From assembly GCF_031851795.1 (NCBI RefSeq), contig NZ_CP134696.1, positions 3,802,501-3,866,500 on the forward strand: a stretch of 64,000 nt of DNA, in the 5' to 3' direction. Shown here in pieces: positions 11,377-58,461 of the stretch. The translations under genes and the position numbers were made by a program. The notes below the pieces were generated by a model. That model ran no database searches. It saw nothing but the letters and a program-made list of their open reading frames with translations, and was not told the origin of the DNA. Each line of letters begins with the position of its first letter. Positions within the stretch are counted from its first letter, which is position 1. The stretch comes from Pontibacter sp. G13 (GTDB lineage: Bacteria; Bacteroidota; Bacteroidia; J057).

Positions 11377-12336
11377 ATGAGCAAACATTTACCCACGGAT
11401 CAATTTCTTGCTCGACTGTTGAATCGTCAACTTTCTGAGGAAGAGCAGAATGCCTGGGATTTGGATGATCAACAGAAAGATTTACGGAATCTGATCAATG
11501 CCGCTGACCAGCTCAAAGTTCCCCACAAGCAATCCAAGGAAGATGCTTGGGAACAAATGATGCAGCGGATTCAATCCGAGGAAGATGCTTCCCCAGTTCA
11601 GACTCCTGTAATTCCTTTGTTTACTCGTTTGAAGCCTTGGATGACTGCCGCAGCTGCTGTTGCAGTGCTGATTGTTTCGTATTTGATCCTGACGCCTTCC
11701 AGTTCTCAGATATCCGCACCACTTGGTCAACAATTGACCCATCAATTGCCTGATCAGTCCACGGTTATCCTGAATGCTGGCTCTGAAATATCTTATGATG
11801 CTGAATCATTCGCGGAAACGCGAGTTCTCGAACTCAAGGGAGAGGCATTTTTCAAAGTTGCTCCCGGAAAGTCGTTCATCGTAGATACCGAAGAAGGTGA
11901 TGTCGAAGTTCTGGGTACGAGTTTTAATACTCGTGCGAGAGATGGAAAAATGGAAGTCATTTGTTACACGGGAAAGGTAAAAGTGACTGCCGAATCAGGA
12001 AGTGAGGAAGTAATCCTTACACCCGGTCAATCTGCAAATACTTATCAAGGTGGACTCAATACGGCGGAAATTGCGAATTTGGACGCTGCACCCCAATGGA
12101 CAAAAGGTGTGTTCAGCTTCAAGAAAAGCGATTTTTCAGATGTCGTAGCAGAGTTGGAACGTCAATTTGATGTGCAAGTTCAGTATGAAAATATGGAAGG
12201 TCGTACTTTGACTATTACATTTTTCAACGATGACATGGAGCTGGCACTCAAAACAATCTGTGAAGCTTTGGATTTAAATTATATCTTTACTGATGAAGAT
12301 AAGTCCAAAGTCGTGCTGAAACCAGCACAGCAGTAG
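11377..12336 (+). CDS. FecR-family anti-sigma factor
   Basis: 319 residues in the standard order: a cytoplasmic N-terminal region that binds sigma (residues 1-85), one membrane helix (about 89-107; TAAAAVAVLIVSYLILTP), the periplasmic FecR domain (about 112-235; TVILNAGSEISYD, GEAFFKVAPGKSFIVDTEEG) and the DUF4974 domain (about 242-315; GVFSFKKSDFSDVVAELERQ). The last two receive the signal from the STN domain of the TonB receptor, whose gene begins 25 bp downstream. All three genes of the module are intact and in order. Confidence 0.93.
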   Translation: MSKHLPTDQFLARLLNRQLSEEEQNAWDLDDQQKDLRNLINAADQLKVPHKQSKEDAWEQMMQRIQSEEDASPVQTPVIPLFTRLKPWMTAAAAVAVLIVSYLILTPSSSQISAPLGQQLTHQLPDQSTVILNAGSEISYDAESFAETRVLELKGEAFFKVAPGKSFIVDTEEGDVEVLGTSFNTRARDGKMEVICYTGKVKVTAESGSEEVILTPGQSANTYQGGLNTAEIANLDAAPQWTKGVFSFKKSDFSDVVAELERQFDVQVQYENMEGRTLTITFFNDDMELALKTICEALDLNYIFTDEDKSKVVLKPAQQ

Positions 12337-12361: not shown

Positions 12362-15034
12362 ATGGCGTGTTCCAGATATGTAATGATCTGGCTTCTGATA
12401 ACATTCACCTGGCTGGGCGCTAGCGCTCAGTCGGGTGTCTTGGTATCTGAGTCATTCAGAAATACGCCACTTTCCATGGTATTCGGACGCCTCGAATCCC
12501 ATTATCCCGTTTCTTTTTCCTACGACGATCGACTTATCGATGGAATCCGAGTTACCGCTCGCTTCCGAGGAATACCTCTGGATACCGTTTTGCATCGCGT
12601 TTTGCGCAATACAGAACTTGAACACGTTTCTTTGGCCCGCGGTCAGTATGTGATTCGATCCAAAAAGCGGCAAAGTAAAACTGGGGGTATTTGGTCTTAT
12701 TACAGGACCATCAAGGGACATGTTCATGATGGCGCTACCAACCAGCCTATTGATTACGCTCAGGTATATCTAGAGGTCAATAAGTCTGGCGCTCATTCTG
12801 ATGACCAAGGAATGTTCGAGTTGGAATTACCCGCAGGAAGAACTGATACTCTCCTAATTTCGCGAATTGGGTATCAGGCGTTGAGAATTCCCATTGATGC
12901 CGAAACGAAATCCTTTGATTTGGCGATTGCTCTCTCTCCGGTAGATGTCGCATTGGATCCTGTGGTCATTCCAGAAACCAACGGGCAGGTGATTGAAATC
13001 ACTGATGCTGCAAATGTTATCTCGTTGGATCCGGAAACCACTCCGAATATGGCCGGATTCGGAGAGCCAGATATCTTCAGAACGCTCCTGCTGTTGCCGG
13101 GAATCTCTAGCATTGATGAATCCGTTTCAAATCTGAATGTTCGAGGCGGAACTATGGACCAAAACTTGGTCCTCTTCGATGGTATTACGGTGTATGAACC
13201 CAGCCACATGTTTGGCAGAGTGAGCGCATTCAATGATCAGGCCGTCAAGCAAGTTTCTATCCATCGAGGCGGATTTCATTCCAAGTTCGGCGGAAGATTG
13301 TCAAGTGTAATTGACGTTGAAGGAGCTCCGACCCAACCGACTGAATGGCATGCGGGAGGTTCAATCAACTTGTTGAATGCCAATATTTTCGGAGAGGCTC
13401 CTATTTTCAAAAAACAGGGGGCAGTTAGAGTCGCTATGCGTCGGTCTTTTTCTGATCTTCTCTCCAATCCCGTTTACAGTCGATTATTCGATAATACTTT
13501 TCAAGAAGGAGTCATCTTCCAAGATCAAGTAAAGCTCGCCGAAGGACAGGCCATCGATTTGAGTCCGAGCTTCTTTTTTTCAGATATCAATCTGAAAATG
13601 GTTTATCGACCGACTCCAGAGGACAAACTATTTGTGTCCTTTTATCGTGGCAATGACAACCTCAAGTACTATAGCCTTGCATCTCACTCTGAGGGAGAAC
13701 AATCCTCCTTCGATGAGTTGAAACTGATGAATAAAGGAATCAGCTTTAATTGGTCGAGAAACTGGGGTGCTAAACTTGAGACCAGCGCAACATTGGCGAT
13801 GTCCACATTCGAAAATTCTTATGGATACTCTTTCCAAGACGTATCCGATTTGGGAGAATTACGCTACGATTACTATCTCGACAACCAAATCAAAGATTAT
13901 GGCTTCCGGTTCGATGCAACCACTCGCCTAAATGACCGGAATACCCTTGAATCTGGGATGCATCTTTCTATGCTTTCCACCAATCACCAACTTGGATATT
14001 ACCAGACTTTTCTTCCAGATATGGACAGTCTGGAATTGAATAAAACCGATTCAGATCAGGTTGGGGGGGTAATGGCTGTATATGCGCAGCACACATATCT
14101 TCCATTCAACAATCTTTCAGTGAGTATCGGAGGGAGAGGTCAATACTACTCTGGTACGTCTCAATTCTATTTGTCCCCTAGATCTACCATAAAGTGGGCG
14201 ATTTCCAATCAGGTATCTCTTAAGGGCTCGGTCGGAAAATTTCATCAATTCGTAAATAGAACCCAACATGCCAATCTGGTTCATGCTGGCGAAGATGTTT
14301 GGAGGCTTGCGGATGCGGATTCCATTGGTGTGAGTCAAGCATGGCATTACATTGTAGGAGGCGCTTATGAAGGCAAGGACTTTTTGGTGAACTTGGAGCT
14401 CTACCGAAAGGATCTCAATGGATTGCTTACTTACCATACAGATTCTTATATCGCAGATGAAGATCTTCAAGGTCAGCTCAATCTTTTCAAAGACGGATCT
14501 GGCTGGGTCAATGGGTTGGATCTATTGGTCAAGAAAGAATGGGGATCCTATGTAGGATGGGTTTCCTATACTTTGGCCAAAACCATGTACCGCTTCGAAG
14601 AAATCAATAATGGTAGTGAATTCGCTGCCAATCATGATCGACGACATACCTTGAAGTTGGTCAATATGTACCGCCTCAACCAATGGTCTTTCACCGCGAC
14701 TTGGATGTTTAACAGTGGAGCACCTTTCACCAATATTGGAAGCGTTGAAGGAGGGGCTATTCCACAGATAACCTTCGGCCCCAAAAATGCTGAAAATCTT
14801 CCCCTCTATCATAGATTGGATCTTTCTTCTTCCTACGAATTTCAATTTCGTGAAAAGTGGAATGGTCAAGTGGGTCTTTCGATTTTCAATCTTTACAACC
14901 GTATGAACATCAGCGATGTGCGGTTTATGGTTGCGCCCGGTGCTGACCCTGAGGCCAAAAACCCTCCTATCGTACAACTCAATAAGCGCTTGATGGGAAT
15001 CAGCCCCAATGTATTCCTGAATCTTGAGTTCTAA
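12362..15034 (+). CDS. TonB-dependent transducer with STN and carboxypeptidase-like domains
   Basis: 890 residues. A signal peptide (ending LGASAQ) is followed by an STN signalling domain (about 25-100; SFRNTPLSMVFGRLESHYPV, VSFSYDDRLI), a carboxypeptidase-like domain (about 120-205; IKGHVHDGATNQPIDYAQVY), the plug (about 225-330; LLLLPGISSIDESVSNLNVR, GGTMDQNLVLFDG) and the barrel, which ends with NVFLNLEF. The STN domain is what distinguishes a transducing receptor: bound ligand is reported to FecR in the periplasm, which frees the sigma factor. There is no SusD-like gene, and the next genes are two secreted metalloproteases, so a peptide or protein-derived ligand is conceivable but unproven. 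Confidence 0.93.
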   Translation: MACSRYVMIWLLITFTWLGASAQSGVLVSESFRNTPLSMVFGRLESHYPVSFSYDDRLIDGIRVTARFRGIPLDTVLHRVLRNTELEHVSLARGQYVIRSKKRQSKTGGIWSYYRTIKGHVHDGATNQPIDYAQVYLEVNKSGAHSDDQGMFELELPAGRTDTLLISRIGYQALRIPIDAETKSFDLAIALSPVDVALDPVVIPETNGQVIEITDAANVISLDPETTPNMAGFGEPDIFRTLLLLPGISSIDESVSNLNVRGGTMDQNLVLFDGITVYEPSHMFGRVSAFNDQAVKQVSIHRGGFHSKFGGRLSSVIDVEGAPTQPTEWHAGGSINLLNANIFGEAPIFKKQGAVRVAMRRSFSDLLSNPVYSRLFDNTFQEGVIFQDQVKLAEGQAIDLSPSFFFSDINLKMVYRPTPEDKLFVSFYRGNDNLKYYSLASHSEGEQSSFDELKLMNKGISFNWSRNWGAKLETSATLAMSTFENSYGYSFQDVSDLGELRYDYYLDNQIKDYGFRFDATTRLNDRNTLESGMHLSMLSTNHQLGYYQTFLPDMDSLELNKTDSDQVGGVMAVYAQHTYLPFNNLSVSIGGRGQYYSGTSQFYLSPRSTIKWAISNQVSLKGSVGKFHQFVNRTQHANLVHAGEDVWRLADADSIGVSQAWHYIVGGAYEGKDFLVNLELYRKDLNGLLTYHTDSYIADEDLQGQLNLFKDGSGWVNGLDLLVKKEWGSYVGWVSYTLAKTMYRFEEINNGSEFAANHDRRHTLKLVNMYRLNQWSFTATWMFNSGAPFTNIGSVEGGAIPQITFGPKNAENLPLYHRLDLSSSYEFQFREKWNGQVGLSIFNLYNRMNISDVRFMVAPGADPEAKNPPIVQLNKRLMGISPNVFLNLEF

Positions 15035-15348: not shown

Positions 15349-18300
15349 ATGAAGAGAATGTTTACTGTCTGGGCATTGTTATGGGCGATGTGTTGCTCGT
15401 CCCTATTTGCCCAATCAAATGCCGCTAATTTTTGGCAGGACGCACCTATTTCCACGCGAGCTCAAAGATCTCATGTTGCCTACCAAGTGGACGATTTTCG
15501 TTCGCTCACATTGAATGAATCCCTCATGAAGCGATTCCTTCAAACGGTTGCACAACAACCTCAGGAACTTGTAATTCCACTTCCTGATGGCACTTTGTCT
15601 ACCTTCCGCATTCATCGCAATCGTACGATGTCTCCCGGACTGCAGGCCAAGTATCCGGAATTGATGACTTTCTCCGGAGTAGAAGTCGGAAATCCTGCCA
15701 ACACCATCCAATTGGAATGGACACCAAATGGGTTTACTGGCCAGATTCTCGGAACAGAAGGAACCATTGTCCTTGATCCATTTGGAAGTGAATTGCCTGA
15801 TCACTACGTAGTTTTTGAAAAAGAAAAAGCTTCTAGTGATTTGACCCAATTTGTCTGTAACGTCATGGGTGGAATTGCACCGCATGAACATCATCATGAA
15901 CATGCACATGCGGCCCGTTCAAATGGTCAATTAAGAACCTACCGCTTGGCGCTTGCGGCTACGGGTGAATACACCAACTTTCACGGCGGAACTGTCCAAG
16001 CTGCACTTGCTGCGATGGTCGTAGTGATGAACCGTGTAAATGGAATCTACAACAGAGAAGTTGGGGTGGAAATGGAATTGATCCCCAATACTGATCTGTT
16101 GATTTACACCAATGGTAGCACCGATCCATACTCCAACAACAGTGGTGGAGCTATGCTTGGTCAAAATCAGACTAATGTCAATAGTGTAATCGGGAGTGCC
16201 AATTACGATATCGGCCATGTTTTCTCAACTGGTGGCGGTGGTATTGCTGCGCTCGGATCAGTTTGCTCCTCTACCAACAAGGCTCGTGGGGTTACTGGAC
16301 TTCCTGCTCCAGTTGGAGACCCGTTTTCTGTAGACTATGTGGCGCACGAGATGGGGCACCAGTTTAGAGGAAACCATACCTTTAATGGTAATTCTGGGTC
16401 CTGTAGCGGCAATGGAAACCTTTCCACAGCCTTTGAGCCTGGGTCAGGATCTACCATCATGGCCTATGCTGGCATTTGTGGTGGTGATAATATCCAGAAC
16501 AATTCCAATGACTACTTCCATGCAGGTAGCTTGGATGAAATTCTTCCATTTGTCCAAAGCTTCGGTGGAAGTACTTGTGGAGTTTTGACTACTACTGGAA
16601 ACACTGATCCCGTCGTTACCACTGATCAAACACCTTATGTGCTGCCCATGATGACGCCTTTCGAATTGGAAGGAATTGCAGCCGATCTTGATGGAGATAC
16701 TGTGACTTACTGTTGGGAACAAATGAACTTCGGTCAATTTGGAGACCCTGGAGCACCAGTTGGAAATTCACCCATCTTCCGCTCTTTCTCTCCAGTTGAA
16801 GTGCCGAATCGCGTATTCCCTCGAATCGAAAATATCATCAACAATACTTCTACCAATTCTGAAGTATTGCCTACCTATAGTCGAGACTTGGACTTCCGCT
16901 TGACAGTTCGTGATAATAAAGGTGGTATTGGCTCAGCAAATATGGCGATGACCGTTGTGAGCTCCGCTGGACCATTCGAAGTTCTTCAGCCTAATGCCTT
17001 CACGACCTACACGGGAGGATTTTTGGAAGAGGTAAAATGGGATGTCGCCAATACAGACCAGATGCCTGTCAATTGCCAAGCAGTCGATATCGTCCTGTCT
17101 ACTGATGGTGGATTTACCTATGATTCCGTGCTTGCTGCAAGTGTTCCAAATACAGGATCTGCATTTGTAGTGATTCCCGACATTCAGGGACAAAACAATC
17201 GGATTCGAGTCCAGGCGGCCGATAATGTGTTTTTCGATATTTCAGACGTAAACTTTTCCATTATTTCCTCTCCGATCCAAGGATTCAAAATGTATCCGAC
17301 TCCTTCCAAAGCTTTTGGTTGTGTAGGAGATACAGTCACATTTGATTTCTTGACAACCTCTCTTGCGGGTCTTCAAGAGGCATTTGGTGTAAGTCCAGTC
17401 GGACTTCCTGCAGGAGTAACTATGGAGATGGATACAGACTCTGTAGAGATTGGGCAAAACTTCCAGGTGAGATTCATCATCCCAGATACCTTGTCTGCGG
17501 GTGATTATCCTTTTGACTTGATCGGAGTATCTGCCAGTGGCAAAGCAGAGTTCATTAATCTTGAATTGGGTATCAGCGACGAGGCAGGAATTGCCGTTAC
17601 CAATCTCTCCCCAATCAATGGTGCGAATGGAGGAAGTGGTGCTACTTCTCTGGTATGGCAATCTGCTGAAGGAGCTGTTGCCTACGAATGGCAGTTGTCC
17701 ACGGACCCTACTTTCTCTGCGGTTCTAGAATCAGGGATTACTACTCAAGACACCTTCGCGAGTCTTACTTCCAATTTTGCGGCATTGACCACATACTATT
17801 GGAGAGTTCGTTCCGAAAACGTTTGTGGCTGGGGAGAATACAACTCTACCTTTGCTTTCCGTACGGGTTTCTGTGCTCCTCAAGGTAGTATCGATGTGCC
17901 AAAAACTATCCCTACGTTTGGTATCCCGAACATCGTCACTTCTACGTTGACCTCTTTCTTGTCTGGTTCTATTTCCGATATCAATGTGGTCAACATCAAG
18001 GGAACTCATGCACGGGTCTCCGATCTGGAATTTACCTTGATCAGTCCGGGCGGAACTCAGGTACAGCTTTTTTCTGGAATTTGCGGAAATGCATCTTTTG
18101 CTGATTTCGATCTCGGGTTTGATGATGAATCCAACTTGAGCGCAATTGATTGCCCTGCTACTACTGGAGACTTGTACCAACCAACTGGTTCGTTGTCCGA
18201 CTTCATTGGAGAATCTCCTCAAGGAAACTGGATTCTTCAAGTGGAGGACAAAGTGACTGGAACGGGTGGCTTCTTGACTTCTTGGTCCCTTGAAATCTGT

Positions 18301-18930
18301 GTAGATGGAGCTGATGCGCCATTTATCGTGAATAATGCTCCAATGGCCCTGAGCAGATGGGGCGCAGGAAACTTCACTACGGCTTTGCTGGAAGCTTCCG
18401 ATGGTGCAACTGCTCCAAGTGGATTGACCTTCACGATTCTTGACGCTCCAGATTGGGGAGATATTTCCCTGAATGGAACCGACATTACTGTAGGTGATCA
18501 ATTTACTCAGGATGATATCAACAACGGAAATCTGATCTATTTCCACGATGGTGAGTATGTAGCAACTGATGCTTTCACCTTTACTGTTGAAAACCAGAGT
18601 GGAGGTTGGCTTGGGACCCCTCAATTCGTATTTGTTGTTGATACTACGAATGTCTCGAATGATCCAGCATTTGATCTGGCTGCCATCAAGGCATTCCCGA
18701 ACCCTGCCGATCATTTGGTGAATGTAGAAATTTCAGGTGCACCTGCTGGAGATTACACAGTCAAAATGCTGGATCTACAAGGTCGTCTGATCAAATCCAT
18801 GAACCTTGAATTGATGGGCAATGAAGCTCGTTCCATGAGCTGGTCTGTGGAAGCATTGCCAGCTGGAATGTATCTCATTCAGGTATCCAGCGAGCTGGGA
18901 TCATTCACACAGAAACTGATTGTGAAGTAA
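15349..18930 (+). CDS. T9SS-secreted reprolysin-type zinc metalloprotease (paralogue 1)
   Basis: 1193 residues. Signal peptide (ends SLFAQ), a pro-region to about residue 180 rich in histidine at its end (HEHHHEHAHAA), then the catalytic domain (about 195-400) with HEMGHQFRGNH, the HExxHxxxxxH zinc site, starting at His333, and a downstream STIMAYAGICG methionine turn. Next come beta-sandwich domains, a fibronectin-like domain (about 745-845; YYWRVRSENVCGWG), a proprotein-convertase P-type domain (about 850-985; GTHARVSDLEFTLISPGG) and a cadherin-like repeat (LTFTILDAPDWGDISLNG). The end is a type A T9SS sorting domain (KAFPNPADHLVNVEI to SFTQKLIVK). It should be exported by the T9SS and anchored or released outside. 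A 170-bp gap and a terminator divide it from its paralogue. Confidence 0.93.
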   Translation: MKRMFTVWALLWAMCCSSLFAQSNAANFWQDAPISTRAQRSHVAYQVDDFRSLTLNESLMKRFLQTVAQQPQELVIPLPDGTLSTFRIHRNRTMSPGLQAKYPELMTFSGVEVGNPANTIQLEWTPNGFTGQILGTEGTIVLDPFGSELPDHYVVFEKEKASSDLTQFVCNVMGGIAPHEHHHEHAHAARSNGQLRTYRLALAATGEYTNFHGGTVQAALAAMVVVMNRVNGIYNREVGVEMELIPNTDLLIYTNGSTDPYSNNSGGAMLGQNQTNVNSVIGSANYDIGHVFSTGGGGIAALGSVCSSTNKARGVTGLPAPVGDPFSVDYVAHEMGHQFRGNHTFNGNSGSCSGNGNLSTAFEPGSGSTIMAYAGICGGDNIQNNSNDYFHAGSLDEILPFVQSFGGSTCGVLTTTGNTDPVVTTDQTPYVLPMMTPFELEGIAADLDGDTVTYCWEQMNFGQFGDPGAPVGNSPIFRSFSPVEVPNRVFPRIENIINNTSTNSEVLPTYSRDLDFRLTVRDNKGGIGSANMAMTVVSSAGPFEVLQPNAFTTYTGGFLEEVKWDVANTDQMPVNCQAVDIVLSTDGGFTYDSVLAASVPNTGSAFVVIPDIQGQNNRIRVQAADNVFFDISDVNFSIISSPIQGFKMYPTPSKAFGCVGDTVTFDFLTTSLAGLQEAFGVSPVGLPAGVTMEMDTDSVEIGQNFQVRFIIPDTLSAGDYPFDLIGVSASGKAEFINLELGISDEAGIAVTNLSPINGANGGSGATSLVWQSAEGAVAYEWQLSTDPTFSAVLESGITTQDTFASLTSNFAALTTYYWRVRSENVCGWGEYNSTFAFRTGFCAPQGSIDVPKTIPTFGIPNIVTSTLTSFLSGSISDINVVNIKGTHARVSDLEFTLISPGGTQVQLFSGICGNASFADFDLGFDDESNLSAIDCPATTGDLYQPTGSLSDFIGESPQGNWILQVEDKVTGTGGFLTSWSLEICVDGADAPFIVNNAPMALSRWGAGNFTTALLEASDGATAPSGLTFTILDAPDWGDISLNGTDITVGDQFTQDDINNGNLIYFHDGEYVATDAFTFTVENQSGGWLGTPQFVFVVDTTNVSNDPAFDLAAIKAFPNPADHLVNVEISGAPAGDYTVKMLDLQGRLIKSMNLELMGNEARSMSWSVEALPAGMYLIQVSSELGSFTQKLIVK

Positions 18931-19099: not shown

Positions 19100-22000
19100 A
19101 TGAAGCATTTGTTACTGTCTGTGTCTCTATTTTGGGGGATACACATTGCTTGCGCCCAATCCTTCTGGACGCCTCGACAAGCTGTCAATACCCGACACAC
19201 CACTGAACTCCCGAATCAATATTCTGCCTTTGACTTGGAGGAACGGGGGTTGTGGGCAAAACTTCAATCCGTCAAATCTGCAAGTCACTCATCTCCTCAA
19301 GTTATCTCTCTGCCGCTTGGCCAAGGAAATCAGGCCGATTTTCGGGTATGGGAGGGTTCAATCATGGCTCCTGCACTTGCCATGAAATATCCCGAAATCT
19401 GGGTATTCGAAGGGGAAATGGTTGATCAACCCAATGTCCGCCTTAAGGCCAATTGGGGGAAAGGGCAATTTCACGCTATGATTTCAGGTCCAGAAGAGAC
19501 GATTTATCTGGACCCTGTACGCGATACCGATCACCAATATGTAGTCTACGAATCTCAGCATCGCCGATCAGGTGAAGCATTTACCTGCGAAACACACGGC
19601 GAAGAAGCGCTTTTTGAGCAAATGTCTCATATTCACCATCGAGGTATATCCGGCTTGACAGGCGAGGACTTGTACACGTATCGATTGGCAATGGCTGCTG
19701 ATAGTGCCTATACGGCTTTTCATGGGGGCACAAAGTCTGATGCTTTGGCTGCGATGGCCGTGGTGGTCAATCGCGTAAACGGCGTGTTTGAACGAGAATT
19801 TTCGATTCATCTAGAACTGATTCCCAACAACGATCAATTGATTTTCACCGGAGCGGATGGATATACCAATGGGGATATTTTTGCAATGTGGGCGCAGAAC
19901 CAATCTGTTTTGAACTCTATTATCGGTTCAGGAAATTATGATATCGGCCACGTACTCGGCAAATTGAACGGATTTGGCGTAGTCGGTCTCGCTTCTTTGG
20001 GAAGTGTGTGTGGATCTTTCAAAGCTCGTGGAGCATCAGGACTTCCTTCACCTATCGGAGATGGATATATGGTAGAGGTCGTTTGCCATGAAATGGGCCA
20101 CCAATTCGGTGCTACACATACCTTCAATTCCAATGGCGGTTCATGCCAAGACAATCGAACAGGCATTACCGCCTACGAACCCGGGTCCGGGAGTACCATC
20201 ATGTCCTACCCAGGAGAATGTGGCCATGTAATTCAAACTTCAGGAGATGACTACTTCCATACGGGGAGTTTTTCACAGATTTATCAGTTTACCCGATTCG
20301 GCAATGGAAGCAATTGTGTAAGCACATCTCCTACCGGCAATCATTCCCCAACGGCTGATGCTGGCCCGAGTGGATACATCATTCCGATTTCCACTCCCTT
20401 CGAATTGGTTGGTTCTGCTTCTGATATTGACGGGGACGATCTCACCTATAACTGGGAACAGTATGATCTAGGTCCTGCGGGTGCTCCCAATAGTCCTACC
20501 GGGAATGCCCCCCTCTTTCGCAGTATTCGTCCTGATACGCTGCTGAGTCGAGCATTTCCTCGCTACCAGAATATCATCGCTGGGACACAAACGACGGGTG
20601 AAATTCTCCCAAATTACAGCCGTGATATGCAATTCCGTTTTACGGTCAGGGACAATCATCCCGGTTCAGGCGGTGTAGATTTTGATCTGATGACCATGAG
20701 TGTGACTGATCAGGCCGGTCCTTTCCGTGTATTGGAACCGAATCTAGTGACCACTTGGACATCGGGTTTTCTGTATGATGTCGAATGGGATGTTGCAGGT
20801 ACGGACCAATCCCCTGTGAATTGCCAATCCGTCAATTTGAAACTATCCACGGATGGCGGGTATACTTATCCTATTACGCTAGCAAGTAACATTCCCAATG
20901 ATGGATTTGCCCAGGTCGTGGCTCCAGATGTTTCTGGAAACACCATGAGATTGCGAGTAGAAGCTGCCGATAATGTATTCTTCGATATATCAGACGAGCA
21001 CTTCCAGATTCAGCCTTCCACGATCGCAGGGTTCAATCTCTACACCCTCTCACAAGATGAGTTGTTATGCGAATCTGATACGGTTCAATTTGATCTATTA
21101 ACCACTTCGTTGCTGGGCTTTCAGGGAGCGATCAATTTCTATCTCCTCAATGCTCCTGCGGATGTAGAATTGCTTCCCGGCGCAAATCCGGTTATTCCCG
21201 GAGACTCTGTCCAAGTAAGCTTGGTCATTCCTGATAGCCTCGCTGCGGGAACCTATACTTGGGATCTTTTGGGAGTTGCGTCAAATGGCTTTTCCGGAGC
21301 CACTCAACTGACACTAACAGTGGTCGGGAACCAAATTCAAACTGCTGATTTGCTTTACCCGCTATCAGGAGTTGGCCAAGCACAGGCACCGATATTTGGT
21401 TGGTCACCTGTGTTGGGAGCTGATTTTTATGAAGTGGAGGTCAGTGATGATCCGGCATTTGGAGCTTCTGTCATTTGGTCTGGTTCGACCAACTTGACCA
21501 GTATTCAACCGCCAGTCAATCTCGATTTTCTGAGCGTGTACTATTGGCGAGTCAAGGCACATACCCCTTGTGGATTTGGAGACTTTTCATCGGTAGGCGG
21601 ATTTCAGACAGGGTTGTGTGTATCTGCTCAAAGCTCTGGTGGGCCTCAGCCAATATCTGAGTTTTCGTTTCCTGCTGTCGCTAGTTCCCAGGTGGTTGCC
21701 CCATTCGCAGGAACTGTATTGTTTATTCGGATGAATAACATCACAGGCGATCATCCAGCTATCGATCAGTTGAGTGGGACCTTGACGAGTCCTGCTGGGA
21801 CTAAATTATCCGTATTCGAAGGATTGTGTACTGCGAACGCTTCTGCATTTGACCTGACTTTGGATGATCAATCTGTGATGGAACTATCTGATTGCCCTTC
21901 AGTGTGGAATGGTGCATTCCGTCCTTCGAATTCCCTTGCTCAATTTCATGGTGAAGATGCCCAAGGAGCTTGGACCCTTGAGGTGCGAGATTCTACTGTC

Positions 22001-22666
22001 GGTCAAGGCGGAACCCTCAATGGGTGGGAACTAGAGGTGTGTTTCGGTACATCCACTGATCTGGCGATTACGAATCTCAATCCGCTCTCAATCCTTCGAT
22101 ATGATACCAAAGCGATTGATGGCAATCTTCTGTTGGCTCAAGAGTCTGGTACGATGTCTGGGGACCTTACCTTTAAATTGTTGTCTGACCCGCTATATGG
22201 GACGGTTTACAAGAATGCCATTGAACTGGAAGTAGGGGAGACATTTACCCAATCGGACGTTGATCAAGGACTGATTGAATACAGACAAGGAGGGAGTATC
22301 ATTCCTGTCGACAGTTTCCAGATTGAGGTGAGTTCTACTTCTGGAGCATGGGTCGGTACGCCATTTTTTAAGGTGAATGTCGATCTATCCAATGTCTCGA
22401 TTGACCCAGAGGCTGGATGGGAACTTGACATTTATCCGAATCCTGTGAGCGATGTCTTGCATATCAAATTGAATGCGCTTCAAACGGGAGCTTGGAACCT
22501 CAAGGTGTTGGATCTGCAGGGGAGAGTGTTGCATCAAGCCATTCATTCTGCTGATGGAGGTCTCTTCCAGACTGAGGTACATATGAAAGACTGGGCGAAA
22601 GGAATCTACTTGATTCAATTGACGGGTCTTCAAGGGCACATTTCGAGAAAAGTGATCTTGGAGTAA
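19100..22666 (+). CDS. T9SS-secreted reprolysin-type zinc metalloprotease (paralogue 2)
   Basis: 1188 residues with the same architecture as the preceding protein: signal peptide (IHIACAQ), pro-region, catalytic domain with HEMGHQFGATH beginning at His330 and a STIMSYPGECG turn, beta-sandwich domains, fibronectin-like domain (YYWRVKAHTPCGFGDFSS), P-type domain, cadherin-like repeat and T9SS sorting domain (LDIYPNPVSDVLHIKL to SRKVILE). Long blocks align throughout (AAMAVVVNRVNGVFEREFS against AAMVVVMNRVNGIYNREVG), so the pair arose by tandem duplication and then diverged a good deal. Differences include a loss of the His-rich pro-region end. Both keep all zinc ligands, so both should be active. 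Confidence 0.93.
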   Translation: MKHLLLSVSLFWGIHIACAQSFWTPRQAVNTRHTTELPNQYSAFDLEERGLWAKLQSVKSASHSSPQVISLPLGQGNQADFRVWEGSIMAPALAMKYPEIWVFEGEMVDQPNVRLKANWGKGQFHAMISGPEETIYLDPVRDTDHQYVVYESQHRRSGEAFTCETHGEEALFEQMSHIHHRGISGLTGEDLYTYRLAMAADSAYTAFHGGTKSDALAAMAVVVNRVNGVFEREFSIHLELIPNNDQLIFTGADGYTNGDIFAMWAQNQSVLNSIIGSGNYDIGHVLGKLNGFGVVGLASLGSVCGSFKARGASGLPSPIGDGYMVEVVCHEMGHQFGATHTFNSNGGSCQDNRTGITAYEPGSGSTIMSYPGECGHVIQTSGDDYFHTGSFSQIYQFTRFGNGSNCVSTSPTGNHSPTADAGPSGYIIPISTPFELVGSASDIDGDDLTYNWEQYDLGPAGAPNSPTGNAPLFRSIRPDTLLSRAFPRYQNIIAGTQTTGEILPNYSRDMQFRFTVRDNHPGSGGVDFDLMTMSVTDQAGPFRVLEPNLVTTWTSGFLYDVEWDVAGTDQSPVNCQSVNLKLSTDGGYTYPITLASNIPNDGFAQVVAPDVSGNTMRLRVEAADNVFFDISDEHFQIQPSTIAGFNLYTLSQDELLCESDTVQFDLLTTSLLGFQGAINFYLLNAPADVELLPGANPVIPGDSVQVSLVIPDSLAAGTYTWDLLGVASNGFSGATQLTLTVVGNQIQTADLLYPLSGVGQAQAPIFGWSPVLGADFYEVEVSDDPAFGASVIWSGSTNLTSIQPPVNLDFLSVYYWRVKAHTPCGFGDFSSVGGFQTGLCVSAQSSGGPQPISEFSFPAVASSQVVAPFAGTVLFIRMNNITGDHPAIDQLSGTLTSPAGTKLSVFEGLCTANASAFDLTLDDQSVMELSDCPSVWNGAFRPSNSLAQFHGEDAQGAWTLEVRDSTVGQGGTLNGWELEVCFGTSTDLAITNLNPLSILRYDTKAIDGNLLLAQESGTMSGDLTFKLLSDPLYGTVYKNAIELEVGETFTQSDVDQGLIEYRQGGSIIPVDSFQIEVSSTSGAWVGTPFFKVNVDLSNVSIDPEAGWELDIYPNPVSDVLHIKLNALQTGAWNLKVLDLQGRVLHQAIHSADGGLFQTEVHMKDWAKGIYLIQLTGLQGHISRKVILE

Positions 22667-30055: not shown

Positions 30056-30113
30056 TTCGTATCTGTTTTCTGCTACAAAAAAAAAGCGATACATAAAGTA
30101 CCGCTCTTAGTTG

Positions 30114-30187
30114 CTCCCCCTCTTGGACTCGAACCAAGGACCTATTGATTAACAGTCAACCGCTCTAACCAACTGAGCTAAGGAGGA
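30114..30187 (-). tRNA. tRNA-Asn (anticodon GTT), copy 1
   Basis: A full 74-nt cloverleaf read on the minus strand: acceptor TCCTCCT/AGGGGGA, D arm GCTC...GAGC, anticodon stem GTTGA/TCAAT around CTGTTAA, T arm CTTGG/CCAAG with TTCGAGT. The discriminator is G and CCA is not encoded. Confidence 0.95.
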
Positions 30188-30217
30188 AAATAATGCTTTC
30201 AACAAGAACTCGTTTTG

Positions 30218-30291
30218 CTCCCCCTCTTGGACTCGAACCAAGGACCTATTGATTAACAGTCAACCGCTCTAACCAACTGAGCTAAGGAGGA
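30218..30291 (-). tRNA. tRNA-Asn (anticodon GTT), copy 2
   Basis: The 74 bases are identical to the other copy, with a 30-bp spacer, so the pair repeats with a 104-bp period. Read on the minus strand this copy comes first. A recent local duplication or ongoing gene conversion would explain the identity. Confidence 0.95.
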
Positions 30292-47127: not shown

Positions 47128-50100
47128 TCAACGGAAAAGGACCAATTTCTCAGCTCGATGTACCGTTCGCCCAGTTTCTACTTCTTTCAACTGAACGGTG
47201 TAGATATACATTCCGCTGCTCAGTGGATTCCCTAGATCGCCTCTGCCATCCCACTTCATACTCTGGAGAACATTGCCTTCAGCATCCATTTCTGCAAATA
47301 GCTGCTTCACTCTTTCACCAGAAGCGGTAAATATATCAATTTGTACTTCAATATCTCGACCATCCAGATTATGGCTAATCAAAAAACGGGTTTCTTCCCC
47401 CATTCTGAATGGGTTAGGAAAGTTGTATAGTTCTTCGATCATCGCCTGTTGATCGTCGACAACTACAAATTCTGTCGTCGCTTCTGAATAGTTGTTCCGG
47501 ACATCCCAAACGCGGATCGTCAACGTATGGGGTCCCAGTTCTAGATCGCTCAGCGGATACCGGACTTCTCCGTACTGGAAACTGTCTGATTTCGCTGTGT
47601 AGTAATCATTCAGAATCCATGTCTGGTCATCTTGCTCATCAAGATAGGCAGCGATTTCGTGACCAATACCAGTACCGATTGTATTGATTCCATTTTCATC
47701 GAATACTTCAGCATAAAGGTCTGGGCTGGAACTTGTGATCCCACCAGAGATCCAATTGCTATCATTGATATACAGCTTCACGGTAGGACCGGTAGTATCC
47801 GGCTCAGCATCTTCGTAGGTTCCACCAACATGGATATTGTCGTAGCAGCCTACTCCGTCCGTGTCTTCATTGAAGAAATAGGTTGTGATTTTCCCTTTGC
47901 CGGGCTCGTAGGAGATATCAATGGGGACGACAAACTCAAATTCAAACGCTCCATCCTTGACTGAGGTCAGGCCGTTGAAAATACGGTTCTTCTGCCAATA
48001 GAAGCTGAATCCACTTTGGCCAGTGGTAAACAAGCCGGGTTTGTCAAAGACTGTTACCTCCATTTCTCCCGCAAAATCATCCATCGGATTGCCTCCCGGA
48101 TCAGTAACAACTCCTGAAACCTTCACTCGCTGAAGCGATTTAAGGGTGTCAACAGCTGTTGGATCTATCGGAACTTCATTGACTGTCACCATCTGAGCTC
48201 GATTCTTGGGATAATTAAGAATCAACCCCGGATCGCCTAGCAGGGTGAAGTTTCTAGAGTTAATGTTCGTCAGATTGCCTCCCGGGAAGGTGATGTTTTT
48301 GGTCTGCATCATGATCTCTCCCACAGTTGGCATCCGGTTCTTTTCATGATCCCAGCTGAGGCTATACTTATAGAAGTTTCTGTTCAGGGTCGCATTCGGT
48401 GCAGAGTAGACCAATCTCACAGTTGTGAACATGGCAATTGCACCCGCATCAGGCTCTAACAAAAATTGCTCTGCGCCACTAGCTGCTTCTGGATCATCAT
48501 ACCGTCCGAATTCACAGGTGGCTGTTACCACCGCAGGATAGCTTCCTCTATTTTCTAGCTTTCCGATATCGGATACCCTAAAAATGCTGGAATTGGACCA
48601 TTCCTGTGGACTACCATGACCTGTATAATTGACAAGCAGACTTCCTTCATTGAAGCTATTGATCAAGGCTTCGCGTGCTCCTGGGTATTTTTCCCCTGAA
48701 GCGGTATTTTCAACCGGATAGTTATCGGTGTAAATCTTTTCTACTTGGTAGCAAGCTGACGCATCATAGATCTGCGAAGTATAGGCATCCGCCTGAGAGG
48801 TATGGGTAGATCCGTCCTCACGCTTGTAATCGGCAACCAATACAATTCTATTTCTCCAAGGGCCAATTGGGTTGTCGGAGGTGGAATTAACGTATCGAAT
48901 GATTTTATCCACCATGGTTTGGGCCTCATCTATGGTATTCACAGGAAGACGACCAATGGGCACATCGATAGTGTTCACCTGAGTAGTGAGATCTCCATCC
49001 ACGTTGGAACCTTCTCCCCAAAATCCTTCGCTTGGTTCCATGATACCGAAAAAGTCATCTGATGTATAGGAGGTGCTTTGGTGCCAAGAGTTCCGAGATT
49101 GATAGGTTGGGACAAAGTTGGTGGAGGTATTGAGATTGGCAGATACATCTTTGTAGACATAGGTGCCATCTCCAAATAGCAGCACATGTTGGGGAGACAT
49201 CCCCGCTGAGCGCTCATAGAACATCCGGATGAAGTCTCGAATCGCAGAAACATCTTGCTTTCCACTAGAAAATTCTTGGTAAATCTGCTCCGGTGTCACC
49301 AATGCCACAGACCGGTTGTATGCAGTCCGGTGCATGTCAGCCAATTGGTTGGCTTGGTCCCAAAAGTTGGGATGGACGATCATGAGATAATCCACCAAAG
49401 GCATTCCATGCAGATTCTGGTTGGCCATTCCTTCAGCAGAAGCAGGGGAAAGCTCTGTCCCCGTGAAAGCAATGATTCGTTTCGGCGTCTCTGCTTCTAA
49501 TTGGAAATCAAGCGCATTCCCGTTTGAAATTGTGCTGACAATAGTAGGGGAAAGTGGGTTTGTAACATCCCAAACTTTGTATCCATTCGCATTCCCTAGA
49601 GAAATCTCTGCTACTTGACCCGCACCTATTCCTTCAACCAATTCATAGGAAATGGCAGAAGCGCCACCTGTATTCCATCTTCTATCGAATTCGACCTCGA
49701 CCCAATCCAGATATCCTTTCCCGCGGCTAGATCCAGACTTGTTGTATACGAGTCGAAGGTCAAGGGTATTTGCTCCGTTCAAAATGGAAGCAGGCAATTC
49801 GTAGGTGCGTTCGTTTCTCGTGTAATAGGTCGTTTCCTTGCTAGAGGTATTTACTCCACCCAATGTCATGGCGCCTGAAAGCGCAGTACCATTTACATAA
49901 GCATTAAAGGAGGAATTCACATCCGAGTGAGCTGCCACCTGCATTGTCAAGCGAATCATTCCATTTGGATCTGCCGCTGGTACTGGCATCGAAAAGGTTT
50001 GATCCACACTGGCATCAAAGGTTTCTCCCAACCAGTATCTTCCAGAGATGATGGGATTGATCAATTCTGACTCGTGATAAGCGATGCCAACCGCACCTGG

Positions 50101-50589
50101 GGGAGAGTAGGTGGATGTGAGGTTATTGGAATTTGTGACTCGCAATCCATTTTCTGTGCCGATTCGAAGGTAATAAAAGTTGGTGTCGGCATACAGATGG
50201 GTATGGTGATTAAAGCTTGTTCCGTCCAAGGTCCAAGATCCGGGGCCTTCCGCATAGAACCTGACTATATCTCCATTGTCAAAGCTGCCATCTCCCTGCC
50301 CTGTAACCTGAATGGCGTTTTCAACCAGATCATCATGGCGATCAGCGGAATTCAATTGAGGGAGCATTTGGCCCCCATTTCCGAAGATCTGGATCTGCTG
50401 TGGATTGATAGCTGAAGCATCTATGCCAAGTTGGGAGAAGAAGCCAGCATCTAGGCGATAGATACCAGTCTCTGTGATCCCGATTTTATACCATGTTCCG
50501 TCATTCAAAACGGATTGGTTACTAAACGATTGGGCCTGAACCTGAATAGAGAGGCACAATGCGATCATGGCAGACAGACTACGAATCAT
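47128..50589 (-). CDS. porU: Type IX secretion sortase PorU
   Basis: 1153 residues from the ATG at 50589 (MIRSLSAMIALCLSIQVQAQ). Beta-rich N-terminal domains (about 30-400) lead to a gingipain-like C25 peptidase domain (about 410-790) with the catalytic histidine in NYTGHGSPQEW (His658) and cysteine in TATCEFGRYDDP (Cys692), close to the positions I recall for the Porphyromonas protein. An Ig-like part and a C-terminal sorting-type domain (YNFPNPFRMGEETRFLI to AEKLVLFR) follow. PorU cuts off sorting domains of T9SS substrates and joins the proteins to lipopolysaccharide. The metalloproteases at 15349 and 19100 are expected substrates. Confidence 0.94.
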   Translation of the reverse strand: MIRSLSAMIALCLSIQVQAQSFSNQSVLNDGTWYKIGITETGIYRLDAGFFSQLGIDASAINPQQIQIFGNGGQMLPQLNSADRHDDLVENAIQVTGQGDGSFDNGDIVRFYAEGPGSWTLDGTSFNHHTHLYADTNFYYLRIGTENGLRVTNSNNLTSTYSPPGAVGIAYHESELINPIISGRYWLGETFDASVDQTFSMPVPAADPNGMIRLTMQVAAHSDVNSSFNAYVNGTALSGAMTLGGVNTSSKETTYYTRNERTYELPASILNGANTLDLRLVYNKSGSSRGKGYLDWVEVEFDRRWNTGGASAISYELVEGIGAGQVAEISLGNANGYKVWDVTNPLSPTIVSTISNGNALDFQLEAETPKRIIAFTGTELSPASAEGMANQNLHGMPLVDYLMIVHPNFWDQANQLADMHRTAYNRSVALVTPEQIYQEFSSGKQDVSAIRDFIRMFYERSAGMSPQHVLLFGDGTYVYKDVSANLNTSTNFVPTYQSRNSWHQSTSYTSDDFFGIMEPSEGFWGEGSNVDGDLTTQVNTIDVPIGRLPVNTIDEAQTMVDKIIRYVNSTSDNPIGPWRNRIVLVADYKREDGSTHTSQADAYTSQIYDASACYQVEKIYTDNYPVENTASGEKYPGAREALINSFNEGSLLVNYTGHGSPQEWSNSSIFRVSDIGKLENRGSYPAVVTATCEFGRYDDPEAASGAEQFLLEPDAGAIAMFTTVRLVYSAPNATLNRNFYKYSLSWDHEKNRMPTVGEIMMQTKNITFPGGNLTNINSRNFTLLGDPGLILNYPKNRAQMVTVNEVPIDPTAVDTLKSLQRVKVSGVVTDPGGNPMDDFAGEMEVTVFDKPGLFTTGQSGFSFYWQKNRIFNGLTSVKDGAFEFEFVVPIDISYEPGKGKITTYFFNEDTDGVGCYDNIHVGGTYEDAEPDTTGPTVKLYINDSNWISGGITSSSPDLYAEVFDENGINTIGTGIGHEIAAYLDEQDDQTWILNDYYTAKSDSFQYGEVRYPLSDLELGPHTLTIRVWDVRNNYSEATTEFVVVDDQQAMIEELYNFPNPFRMGEETRFLISHNLDGRDIEVQIDIFTASGERVKQLFAEMDAEGNVLQSMKWDGRGDLGNPLSSGMYIYTVQLKEVETGRTVHRAEKLVLFR

Positions 50590-50845
50590 AATTGGGAAGT
50601 TTTGTACGAACACAGCCCAAAATATTAAATCCCCTTGAAGGTTGAGGGGTAAAAATACAGACCCTCATGATGTACCTACATGTGGAATGCAGGAAATATG
50701 AATGGAACGAGTGGGAGTCAAATACGGGCGCGGATGAAAGGATAGTGTACGGAACTTTCCGATTCCTGTATCCATCGACAATATGTAGGTTGGGGGCCGA
50801 TGGAAATGTTGGCTAAGGGACAATCTGATCCATAAAAGAGCAGGG

Positions 50846-55952: not shown

Positions 55953-57896
55953 TTACTCCTTGGAGAGTGGTGCTAAATTATACATGATGGAAAATCCGAT
56001 TCCTCCCGAGTATAGTCTTTTATTGAGGCCCACTGCGTCAGCACCCTTGGTCCGTTGAAGGCTCTGTTGAAAATAGGGCTCCAGTTGAAGAGAGATACCT
56101 TTGGTAAGCTGATATTCAAGTCCCATCGAAACTTGAACATTACCGGGATAGGTATTTAAGTTCCATGTGCGGTCTTCGGAAGGCTGTCGCCTTGGATCAA
56201 CAGAAGGACCATTCTGTCCCCCATCCAACGGACTGTAATGCGTATAATCTTCCCGAATACTTACCATAGTTACCATTCCTCCCTGTAGATAAAGTGATAG
56301 CTTTCCAGTGGAAGGGAAGGTATACCGCATTAGCAATGGAAACTCGATAAACTGCATATCTCCGTCCAGCGCAAATGCGAAGCTTTGATTGCCGCTTGTG
56401 AGGTAGTACTCATGCTTGAACAGCTTTTCGGAATATTGTAACCCCATCAGAGTAGACCACCGATCATTCAATCGGATCTCCACGCGACCACCTGCATTGA
56501 ATCCTTTTTGGGTATCTTTCCGTGTCAGCTCAGCTTTGGTATTTGTGGAGGCTACATAAATACCAAACTTGATTTTGGGGCCTTTCTTGTCCACAATCTC
56601 CTCGGGGATGGTAACACCATTCTGTTTGATGCTCGGAGAAGAGAGAGAAAATGCATGCCCCATGAATAGCCGATCGATTTTGGTCCATTGATCTTTGGGA
56701 TCTGTGGTGGCTGCGGATGGGAAGACAATCGGTTCTCCATCCACGCCTACAGAAGGAGCTTCCTCTTCCTTGATTTCTTGTGCCAGAAGATCTGGGTCAG
56801 AAGGACTGGCTATTGGTTGGAGTTCTGCAAAACTTCCCTCATGTAATCCTTCAGGAGAGGTGTCGGAAAGCGCAGTGTTGGTTCGTTCACCTTCTGTGAT
56901 TTCTTGAGTCTGAGCCATGACAGATAGGGTATCTAGTGTACCCACATCATCGGTCTCTTTGGTCAGCTCGCTATCAGATTGCGCAAGGCCATTCCAAGGA
57001 ATCCAATCTCCGTGGCTACGCTGATTCTGCCAAGTTCCGAATAGAATAAGCAAGAGTATCACCGCAGCGATAGAGCCATACTTGCGTGTAGCTTCCCACC
57101 AAGCGGGTCTACCCAGCATGCCAGCTTGAGCCAGCATTCCTGCCATGGTTTTCCATTCAGGCTGAGAGAACAAGTAGGAACCATTTGAAAGCTTGGTACG
57201 GACGATTTCTTCGATGGGCGCATCCAGCTTTTCTTGCATGTATGCCCAATGAGCAGGATCATATGGTACTGCGAAATGAGCCAGCTTGGTTCTGATCCAC
57301 CCGTCAAATGGATGTGGATCAAGCATACTAGCCATCATCTCCCAATCACCAGCAGGAATTCCCACTTCTAATTGAGCCACCTTCTGCTGGATGACATGAT
57401 CGAATGTAGCCGCCTGATGTGCTTCAAAGGTCTCCCAAGCTTGAGGAGCAAGTGGAAGAGAAGCAGCGACTAGTTTATCTCGAATAGCTGTGTCAACGGG
57501 GTCTTCGTCGAGTTTTGCGGAAAAATCTTCCCAATCAGAAGCAACAAACAAAGGAGCTGCATGCTCCAATTTGTCAATCATTACTTCTTCGAAGGCTGCT
57601 CCATCTAACTTGGCGGCCATGTGAGCCCAATCAAACTCGTTGCTTGGGATCTCATGGGAGTCCAATTTTACTCGGAGCGATCCATCAGATTGTTCTGTCA
57701 ATGCCTCAGAAAACTGACTCCAATCGGATGTGCTGAAATCGGGATTGGATTCCAGTTGGTGCAAGGATTCAGCAATATGTCGATCAATAGCAAGGTCGCT
57801 AGCATGGATATATGCCTCCCATGCCCCTTCCGAAAAAGGCAGGGAATATCCTTCGAGCTTACGCTTGATGATATTGTCGAACGTATCGTTAGGCAT
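55953..57896 (-). CDS. Dual-membrane-spanning anti-sigma-like protein: eight cytoplasmic repeats, TM helix, outer-membrane barrel
   Basis: 647 residues from the ATG at 57896, which overlaps the sigma-factor stop by eight bases. Residues 6-255 are eight repeats of about 32 residues, pattern FDxxIRxKLxxxxxPxxxxxWxxMxxxLD; the tryptophans are at 26, 59, 90, 122, 154, 185, 217 and 248. A membrane helix follows (about 274-289; SIAAVILLLILFG), then an acidic periplasmic linker (about 290-450) and a PorT-like barrel (about 455-647; LMGLQYSEKLFKHEYYLTSG to YSGGIGFSIMYN). One repeat resembles the sigma-binding end of anti-sigma-linked proteins. The layout matches dual membrane-spanning anti-sigma factors (Dma) known in Bacteroides. 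It should hold the sigma factor until the barrel senses an envelope change. Confidence 0.82.
   Translation of the reverse strand: MPNDTFDNIIKRKLEGYSLPFSEGAWEAYIHASDLAIDRHIAESLHQLESNPDFSTSDWSQFSEALTEQSDGSLRVKLDSHEIPSNEFDWAHMAAKLDGAAFEEVMIDKLEHAAPLFVASDWEDFSAKLDEDPVDTAIRDKLVAASLPLAPQAWETFEAHQAATFDHVIQQKVAQLEVGIPAGDWEMMASMLDPHPFDGWIRTKLAHFAVPYDPAHWAYMQEKLDAPIEEIVRTKLSNGSYLFSQPEWKTMAGMLAQAGMLGRPAWWEATRKYGSIAAVILLLILFGTWQNQRSHGDWIPWNGLAQSDSELTKETDDVGTLDTLSVMAQTQEITEGERTNTALSDTSPEGLHEGSFAELQPIASPSDPDLLAQEIKEEEAPSVGVDGEPIVFPSAATTDPKDQWTKIDRLFMGHAFSLSSPSIKQNGVTIPEEIVDKKGPKIKFGIYVASTNTKAELTRKDTQKGFNAGGRVEIRLNDRWSTLMGLQYSEKLFKHEYYLTSGNQSFAFALDGDMQFIEFPLLMRYTFPSTGKLSLYLQGGMVTMVSIREDYTHYSPLDGGQNGPSVDPRRQPSEDRTWNLNTYPGNVQVSMGLEYQLTKGISLQLEPYFQQSLQRTKGADAVGLNKRLYSGGIGFSIMYNLAPLSKE
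57132..57881 (-). repeat. Eight tandem ~96-bp coding repeats in the anti-sigma region
   Basis: The repeats appear at protein level (Trp spacing 33, 31, 32, 32, 31, 32, 31 residues); the DNA copies have diverged widely, so the array is old and kept by selection on the protein, not a recent slippage product. Confidence 0.8.
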
Positions 57897-58461
57897 AGTT
57901 TTCCCCTTCGACTCTTTTGATGATCCTAGCACTTTTGACCATGTGCTGTAATTTGGATCTGGCCTTGGCAAGGTTGGATTTCGAGGTCCCTTCGGAAATG
58001 TTCAGCATCTTTCCTACCTCCTTGTGAGAGTGTCCCTCAATCACGTACAGGTTGAAGACCATTCGATAGGCGGGTGACAATTTTTGCACCAATCCCAAGA
58101 TTTCCTGGGCGCTCATGTCCGAGATTACATCTTGTACGTCGATTTCATGAACCGCGTGATTGATCTCTACGAGGTTGGGTCTTTTGGCCGACTTTCGGTA
58201 ATGATCGATAGCTGTATTGATCATGATTCGGCGTATCCAAGCCCCTAAATTGGTACCCTTATTGAACTGTTTGAGGTTGGAAAAAACCTTCATGAACCCT
58301 TCGTGAAGGACATCGCGTGCCTCTTCACGGTCGTTCGTGTACCGCATACATACCACCATCATACTGCCGTAGAATCGTTCGTACAGCATTTTTTGGTAGG
58401 TCCGGCCTCCGTCAATACACCCTTGGACGAGCTCGTCATCCTGCAAGTCTGAATGTCTCAT
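57889..58461 (-). CDS. ECF RNA polymerase sigma factor
   Basis: 190 residues with region 2 (about 20-90; YQKMLYERFYGSMMVVCMRY, EEARDVLHEGFMKVFSNLKQ) and region 4 (about 125-178; SPAYRMVFNLYVIEGHSHKE, VGKMLNISEGTSKSNLAKAR). A basic C-terminal tail of about 12 residues follows. Its stop lies inside the start of the repeat/barrel gene (8-bp overlap), so the two are translated together, the usual arrangement of a sigma factor with its own anti-sigma factor. Target promoters are not identifiable here. Confidence 0.93.
   Translation of the reverse strand: MRHSDLQDDELVQGCIDGGRTYQKMLYERFYGSMMVVCMRYTNDREEARDVLHEGFMKVFSNLKQFNKGTNLGAWIRRIMINTAIDHYRKSAKRPNLVEINHAVHEIDVQDVISDMSAQEILGLVQKLSPAYRMVFNLYVIEGHSHKEVGKMLNISEGTSKSNLAKARSKLQHMVKSARIIKRVEGENYA

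What the first reader, a model, noticed from the sequence alone, without database searches (positions are those of the whole stretch)
55953..57896. Anti-sigma/outer-membrane-barrel fusion with eight tandem cytoplasmic repeats
Seen: eight repeats of about 32 residues, marked by tryptophans at very even spacing, then one inner-membrane helix, a linker and an outer-membrane barrel; the gene overlaps the stop of an ECF sigma factor. Known: dual membrane-spanning anti-sigma factors in Bacteroides join a cytoplasmic sigma-binding end to an outer-membrane barrel. Inference: here that binding end has multiplied eightfold, so one receptor may hold several sigma molecules or bind one with high avidity, or only one repeat binds and the others space or tune it. 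This would give a graded or cooperative envelope stress response.
Basis: partly seen in the sequence, partly recalled or inferred. Interest (0 to 1): 0.8.

Follow-up and report, generated by a model that had tools for sequence, protein, structure and literature searches.

The report
Anti-sigma receptor with eight sigma clasps
A Bacteroidota gene-switch protein that spans both cell membranes carries eight tandem copies of a short two-helix module; most of its relatives have one copy, which coevolves with the partner sigma factor, so one receptor may hold several sigma molecules, though no binding has been measured.

Summary
The minus-strand gene 57896..55953 (647 aa) starts 8 bp inside an ECF sigma gene. 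It encodes eight ~32-residue tryptophan-marked units, one transmembrane helix, a long linker and an outer-membrane barrel. The unit is not a new domain: in most relatives one copy is the whole cytoplasmic end (224 of 321 distinct sigma/downstream-gene pairs), and the same genome has three single-unit paralogues. Copy number runs from 1 to 8, and the sigma tree suggests at least two separate expansions to three or more units, plus several doublings. In single-unit pairs, coevolution puts the unit's helix 1 on the sigma4 DNA-recognition helix and its second half on sigma2, the dual clasp known from RseA and CnrY; the strongest charged pair is equivalent to RseA D11-RpoE R178. Middle and last array units match the cognate sigma as well as first units do, although the first unit looks most like a single unit and array units diverge faster. 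Best reading: a Dma-type anti-sigma with several sigma-binding sites. Binding, stoichiometry and graded or cooperative output are inferred, not shown. AlphaFold did not settle it. New variant of a known kind.

The parts
57889..58461 (-). ECF sigma factor gene (190 aa), partner of the array protein
   Evidence: Sigma70_r2 and r4_2 in Pfam; orthologue adjacent to an array gene in all 13 genomes of the family
55953..57896 (-). Multi-unit dual-membrane anti-sigma gene (647 aa); start codon overlaps the sigma stop by 8 bp
   Evidence: overlap of 8 or 11 bp in 10 of the 13 family genomes
57792..57887 (-). Unit 1 (residues 4-35, W26); the most single-like unit of the array, acidic contact residue D
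   Evidence: 22.6 bits with the HMM trained on single units only; coupling percentile 0.96
57693..57791 (-). Unit 2 (residues 36-68, W59); degenerate, 2-residue loop insertion
   Evidence: 10.4 bits; not scorable in the coupling test because of the insertion
57600..57692 (-). Unit 3 (residues 69-99, W90)
   Evidence: 13.1 bits; coupling percentile 0.95
57504..57599 (-). Unit 4 (residues 100-131, W122); E instead of D at the contact residue
   Evidence: 17.2 bits; coupling percentile 0.42
57408..57503 (-). Unit 5 (residues 132-163, W154)
   Evidence: 19.5 bits; coupling percentile 0.98
57315..57407 (-). Unit 6 (residues 164-194, W185)
   Evidence: 22.7 bits; coupling percentile 0.98
57219..57314 (-). 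Unit 7 (residues 195-226, W217)
   Evidence: 27.5 bits; coupling percentile 0.94
57123..57218 (-). Unit 8 (residues 227-258, W248), membrane-proximal; E at the contact residue
   Evidence: 14.2 bits; coupling percentile 0.68
57030..57080 (-). Inner-membrane helix (residues 273-289, YGSIAAVILLLILFGTW)
   Evidence: hydropathy; one continuous helix in the AlphaFold model
56577..57029 (-). Periplasmic linker/tether (about residues 290-440), rich in S, T, E, D, P
   Evidence: sequence; no Pfam domain
55956..56576 (-). Outer-membrane beta-barrel domain (about residues 441-647)
   Evidence: Pfam OMP_b-brl_2, residues 452-606, E 1e-8

Best explanation
This is a dual-membrane-spanning (Dma-type) anti-sigma receptor whose cytoplasmic end is a string of eight copies of a ~30-residue two-helix sigma clasp. 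In most relatives one clasp is the entire cytoplasmic anti-sigma domain. Each clasp is inferred to lay helix 1 on the sigma4 DNA-recognition helix (acidic residue u1 against sigma R168) and its second half on the sigma2 domain, blocking promoter and polymerase contacts. The array gives one receptor several sites for the same sigma. Sigma and receptor are made from overlapping genes, so sites should outnumber sigma molecules, which would give a tight off-state and a buffered store released when an outer-membrane signal is passed through the tether. Shown: the array, its homology to single-unit relatives, repeated expansion, coevolution of single units with sigma, and retention of sigma-matching residues in most array units. 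Inferred: physical binding, number bound at once, and the release step.
For: In 321 distinct pairs, 224 downstream proteins have one unit, 42 two and 40 three or more. Array units are recognised by an HMM built from single units only (means 12-21 bits, shuffled about -2). The sigma tree puts arrays of three or more in two separate groups with single-unit rows between. In 190 single-unit pairs, 8 sigma-unit couplings exceed the highest of 20 shuffles: L164, R168, Q172 and I121 of sigma4 with helix 1, V36 and R20 of sigma2 with the loop and helix 2. Barrel columns of the same proteins, a control for shared ancestry, give none. R168 aligns with RpoE R178, whose partner is RseA D11 (PMC7406223). 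Array units rank their cognate sigma at percentile 0.85 (first), 0.86 (middle) and 0.83 (last), against 0.51 for random position pairs and 0.60 for scrambled partners. u1 is acidic in 96% of middle and 83% of last units, against 18-25% at other helix-1 positions. Units of the two array families match their own sigmas better than each other's, non-first units included.
Against: First units score closer to single units than the rest (33 of 40 arrays, p 1.3e-6). At matched barrel identity 0.4-0.5, identity is 0.58 for single units, 0.48 for array first units and 0.39 for the others, so most array units are under weaker constraint. u24 and u12 acids are partly lost in arrays. The R/K168-D/E link rests on only 4-6 independent changes on well-supported branches and is not significant after tree correction. 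Inherited residues could mimic maintained binding. AlphaFold gave no confident array fold (pLDDT 60, pTM 0.22), and the one sigma-unit chain did not report a docked unit. No binding data exist.
Confidence: 0.55

Rival explanations
1. Only the N-terminal unit is the working sigma clasp. The other seven are relics or spacers that lift it away from the membrane or tune access to it.
For: The first unit scores highest against single units in 33 of 40 arrays and is the best conserved at matched barrel divergence.
Against: Middle and last units keep the coevolving residues and match their sigma as well as first units. In the second array family (f18) it is the first unit that departs at u1 (N or D with K168) while the later units all carry E. 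Arrays are kept by all 13 genomes of the family, without visible collapse to one unit.
Confidence: 0.2
2. Several sites, but one sigma at a time: the array raises local concentration so that a released sigma is rebound at once (statistical avidity), sharpening the off-state without storing several sigmas.
For: Units are diverged and probably individually weak. Overlapping genes suggest near-equal production of the two proteins, so most sites would be empty at rest.
Against: Nothing found distinguishes it from multi-sigma storage; production ratios are unknown.
Confidence: 0.15
3. The array is a hub: different units hold different paralogous sigma factors, linking one outer-membrane signal to several regulons.
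For: The genome has about 34 first-look sigma candidates, and the eight units share only about 25% identity with each other.
Against: Unit order and number are not kept between close relatives: same-index identity 0.29-0.35 against 0.27-0.29 for other indices at about 80% sigma identity. Most units match the adjacent sigma.
Confidence: 0.05
4. The protein is not an anti-sigma factor; the units serve another cytoplasmic partner and the neighbourhood is incidental.
For: No curated family covers the unit, and no biochemical test exists for this clade.
Against: Sigma adjacency across 13 genomes and hundreds of relatives; specific sigma-unit coevolution at the known anti-sigma interface.
Confidence: 0.05

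Closest known systems
[quoted passage not shown]
   Same: Same order of parts: N-terminal sigma-binding end, one membrane helix, long disordered tether, C-terminal barrel, gene beside an ECF sigma (PMC13088901).
   Different: The text read describes one N-terminal domain, not an array. Dma sequences themselves were not compared. ECF21 membership of this sigma was not tested.
Class II anti-sigma CnrY (partner CnrH), Cupriavidus metallidurans
   Same: Two helices only: the first binds sigma4, the second sigma2 (PMC7406223). Coevolution predicts the same arrangement for this unit.
   Different: No sequence match of the single-unit profile to CnrY in the PDB. CnrY has one clasp, and this family has an outer-membrane barrel.
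Class I anti-sigma domains (RseA, RsiW, ChrR, RskA)
   Same: Dual inhibition of sigma2 and sigma4; the RseA D11-RpoE R178 contact is equivalent to u1-R168 here.
   Different: Class I domains have four helices; this unit has two and is about 30 residues.
Single-unit barrel anti-sigma-like proteins across Bacteroidota (e.g. loci L024-L026 in the same genome)
   Same: Same unit, sigma neighbour and membrane helix.
   Different: One copy of the unit instead of eight.

Membership tests
[quoted passage not shown]
   Coevolution of the homologous single unit with the sigma; no binding data; not compared with the Dma1/2 sequences
[quoted passage not shown]
   Hydropathy, residues 273-289; about 150 residues of S/T/E/D/P-rich sequence without a Pfam domain
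[quoted passage not shown]
   OMP_b-brl_2, E 1e-8
[quoted passage not shown]
   Adjacent ECF sigma confirmed; no ECF-group models at hand to test ECF21
[quoted passage not shown]
   needs a knock-out
Class II (CnrY-type) anti-sigma domain | two helices, first on sigma4, second on sigma2 | tested here: inconclusive
   10 of the 12 strongest couplings follow this order; helix-loop-helix per unit in a low-confidence model; no complex structure
Class II (CnrY-type) anti-sigma domain | sequence homology to CnrY | tested here: not met
   no CnrY chain among PDB profile matches up to E 10
Class I anti-sigma domain (RseA/ZAS) | four-helix domain of 50 residues or more | tested here: not met
   single-unit relatives have about 30 residues of unit before the membrane helix

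The most novel reading that the evidence does not exclude
Bacteroidota have repeatedly evolved multivalent anti-sigma receptors: tandem arrays of a minimal two-helix clasp, 2 to 8 per protein, that hold several copies of one sigma per outer-membrane sensor, so that copy number sets the threshold and gain of the response.
Probability: 0.45. Interest if true: 0.8.

Novelty: new variant of a known kind. Interest (0 to 1): 0.62.

Why it matters
Anti-sigma factors are usually treated as one-to-one inhibitors. Proteins whose sigma-binding piece is copied up to eight times, with copy number changing between close relatives, would let evolution tune threshold and buffering by adding or losing ~32-residue units. 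The single-unit relatives and the named contact pair (unit u1 with sigma R168) make this directly testable. The work also maps, for this barrel-linked family, where a very short clasp probably grips the sigma.

Tried and rejected
AlphaFold of the eight-unit end: helices, but pLDDT 60 and pTM 0.22, no compact array fold. A complex of the window's sigma with a unit could not be predicted because the tool takes one natural chain. A natural in-frame sigma/anti-sigma ORF (L314) was used instead; the model shows a continuous helix through the junction and unit pLDDT of about 54-78, and its Foldseek matches are all sigma chains. An alignment with unpaired anti-sigma rows failed because MAFFT misplaced them, so only sigma rows were used. 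Profile search of the array against the PDB gave only designed TIM barrels, judged spurious; the single-unit profile gave no anti-sigma chain. One row of alignment A4 has a mistyped residue (MIEN for MIED), which affects only and not noticeably. The hub idea was weakened by the lack of index-by-index conservation. Tree-corrected R/K168-D/E test: right direction but underpowered. Literature searches found no tandem anti-sigma arrays in a library that lacks most subscription papers, the Dma1 paper among them.

Full report
WHAT IS THERE. On the minus strand a 190-aa ECF sigma gene (58461..57889) is followed by a 647-aa gene (57896..55953) whose start codon overlaps the sigma stop by 8 bp. The protein has eight tryptophans spaced 31-33 residues apart at 26, 59, 90, 122, 154, 185, 217 and 248. 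None of 200,000 random placements of its tryptophans gave such a chain, and sequence self-similarity peaks at a lag of 32. Then come a hydrophobic helix (residues 273-289), an S/T/E/D/P-rich linker and a C-terminal barrel with a Pfam match above threshold (OMP_b-brl_2, E 1e-8). No Pfam or NCBIfam model covers the repeated part.

THE UNIT IS THE FAMILY'S SIGMA-BINDING END. All 13 genomes of the bacterium's own family carry an orthologous sigma next to a multi-unit gene, with roughly three to eight units and 8- or 11-bp overlaps in ten of them. In relatives from across the class the gene after the sigma usually has one unit of about 30 residues directly before a membrane helix. Pooled and made non-redundant, 321 pairs gave these unit counts: 0 in 15, 1 in 224, 2 in 42, 3 in 14, 4 in 14, 5 in 7, 6 in 1, 7 in 1, 8 in 3. 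The sample was chosen by similarity to this sigma, so the fractions are not a census, and weak units are undercounted. Three single-unit paralogues lie in the same genome (loci L024-L026). An HMM built only from single units recognises array units: first units averaged 21 bits, middle 14, last 12, shuffled controls about -2. On the sigma tree, arrays of three or more units fall in two groups separated by 28 single-unit rows: the own family, and a second family in the same class. Pairs of units occur in several other places. The tree cannot tell gain from loss, and well-supported branches alone do not exclude one origin. One pair of adjacent units is 74% identical (L157), which points to recent duplication.

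HOW ONE UNIT PROBABLY HOLDS A SIGMA. I tested coevolution between sigma and the unit in 190 single-unit pairs (mean-field direct coupling, about 142 effective sequences). Eight couplings exceeded the highest value of 20 shuffled pairings. L164, R168, Q172 and I121 of sigma4 couple to unit positions u1, u1, u0 and u4 (helix 1). V36 and R20 (twice) of sigma2 couple to u13, u28 and u24 (loop and helix 2). G150-u28 is the exception. Shared ancestry alone does not give this: 34-column samples of the barrel of the same proteins gave no coupling above shuffles, although their top-ten averages were somewhat raised. The most telling pair is u1, acidic in 86% of single units, with sigma R168. By alignment to the solved RpoE chain, R168 corresponds to RpoE R178, which contacts RseA D11, a residue whose mutation abolishes RseA activity (PMC7406223). 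That paper also describes CnrY as two helices, the first on sigma4 and the second on sigma2, the arrangement seen here. The unit is therefore most simply a minimal two-helix clasp. Limits: the number of effective sequences is small, and the R/K168 with D/E u1 association (p 3e-9 uncorrected) rests on four to six independent changes on well-supported branches. These mostly go the expected way but cannot reach significance.

DO ALL EIGHT UNITS WORK? Two lines of evidence pull apart. Against equal roles: first units resemble single units more than the rest do in 33 of 40 arrays (p 1.3e-6). At matched barrel identity of 0.4-0.5, single units share 58% identity, array first units 48% and other array units 39%. 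For multiple working sites: with couplings learned from single units only, the cognate sigma ranks at percentile 0.85 for first, 0.86 for middle and 0.83 for last units. Random position pairs give 0.51 and scrambled partners about 0.60. Non-first units of each array family fit their own family's sigmas better than the other's. u1 stays acidic in 96% of middle units while other helix-1 positions are acidic in 25%. In this protein, units 1, 3, 5, 6 and 7 score 0.94-0.98, unit 8 0.68, unit 4 0.42, and unit 2 could not be scored. A fair summary is that at least five of the eight units look competent, each under weaker constraint than a lone unit, as expected of redundant sites. Inheritance from a matched ancestral unit cannot be excluded as a partial cause.

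STRUCTURE. AlphaFold2 on the N-terminal 314 residues predicts paired helices but with low confidence (pLDDT 60, pTM 0.22) and no compact solenoid. With ten aligned sequences this is weak evidence either way. A natural in-frame fusion of a sigma and a single-unit protein (L314) was folded with sigma homologues only. The sigma part is confident, but the junction is drawn as one long helix and the unit is at pLDDT 54-78, so docking is unresolved.

MECHANISM, SHOWN AND INFERRED. Shown by sequence: the array, the single-unit relatives, the repeated expansion, the sigma-unit coevolution and the retention of matching residues. Inferred: that each competent unit sequesters a sigma by covering sigma2 and sigma4; that gene overlap leads to similar production of the two proteins, so that sites outnumber sigma; and that an outer-membrane cue passed along the tether, perhaps through proteolysis as in other anti-sigma systems, frees the store. 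Graded or cooperative output remains a hypothesis.

COMPARISON AND NOVELTY. The layout is that of the Dma receptors of Bacteroides (PMC13088901), which hold a sigma through an N-terminal domain. I did not have the Dma sequences or ECF-group models, so family membership is likely but not proven. I found no report of tandem anti-sigma modules in the literature available, but that library lacks many papers, including the Dma1 paper. I rate it a new variant of a known kind.

Noticed in passing
L314:1471-3291 (genome search locus, genome G696): Sigma and single-unit barrel anti-sigma in one open frame (about 606 aa) without a stop between them: a natural fusion, or an indel in a draft metagenome assembly.
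   Followed up: partly
window 12362-15034: TonB-receptor-like protein (Plug, CarboxypepD_reg) with FecR_C/STN-type N-terminal hits; the two genes just upstream (10724-11239, 11377-12336) could be a FecI/FecR pair, a second kind of surface-signalling system in the same window.
   Followed up: no
window 15349-18930 and 19100-22666: Two adjacent, similar-sized secreted metalloproteases (Reprolysin-like, P-domain, cadherin-like, type IX sorting tail), apparently a tandem duplication.
   Followed up: no
window 30113-30291: Two tandem tRNA-Asn (GTT) genes.
   Followed up: no
window 47128-50613: Large C25-family peptidase with a FlgD-like Ig domain (gingipain or PorU type).
   Followed up: no
L157 (Saprospiraceae MAG), downstream gene: Two adjacent units 74% identical, a recent duplication of the clasp; other Saprospiraceae (L192, L198, L223) have arrays of five to seven units.
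   Followed up: partly
L051: The gene after the sigma is a second, closely related ECF sigma instead of an anti-sigma.
   Followed up: no
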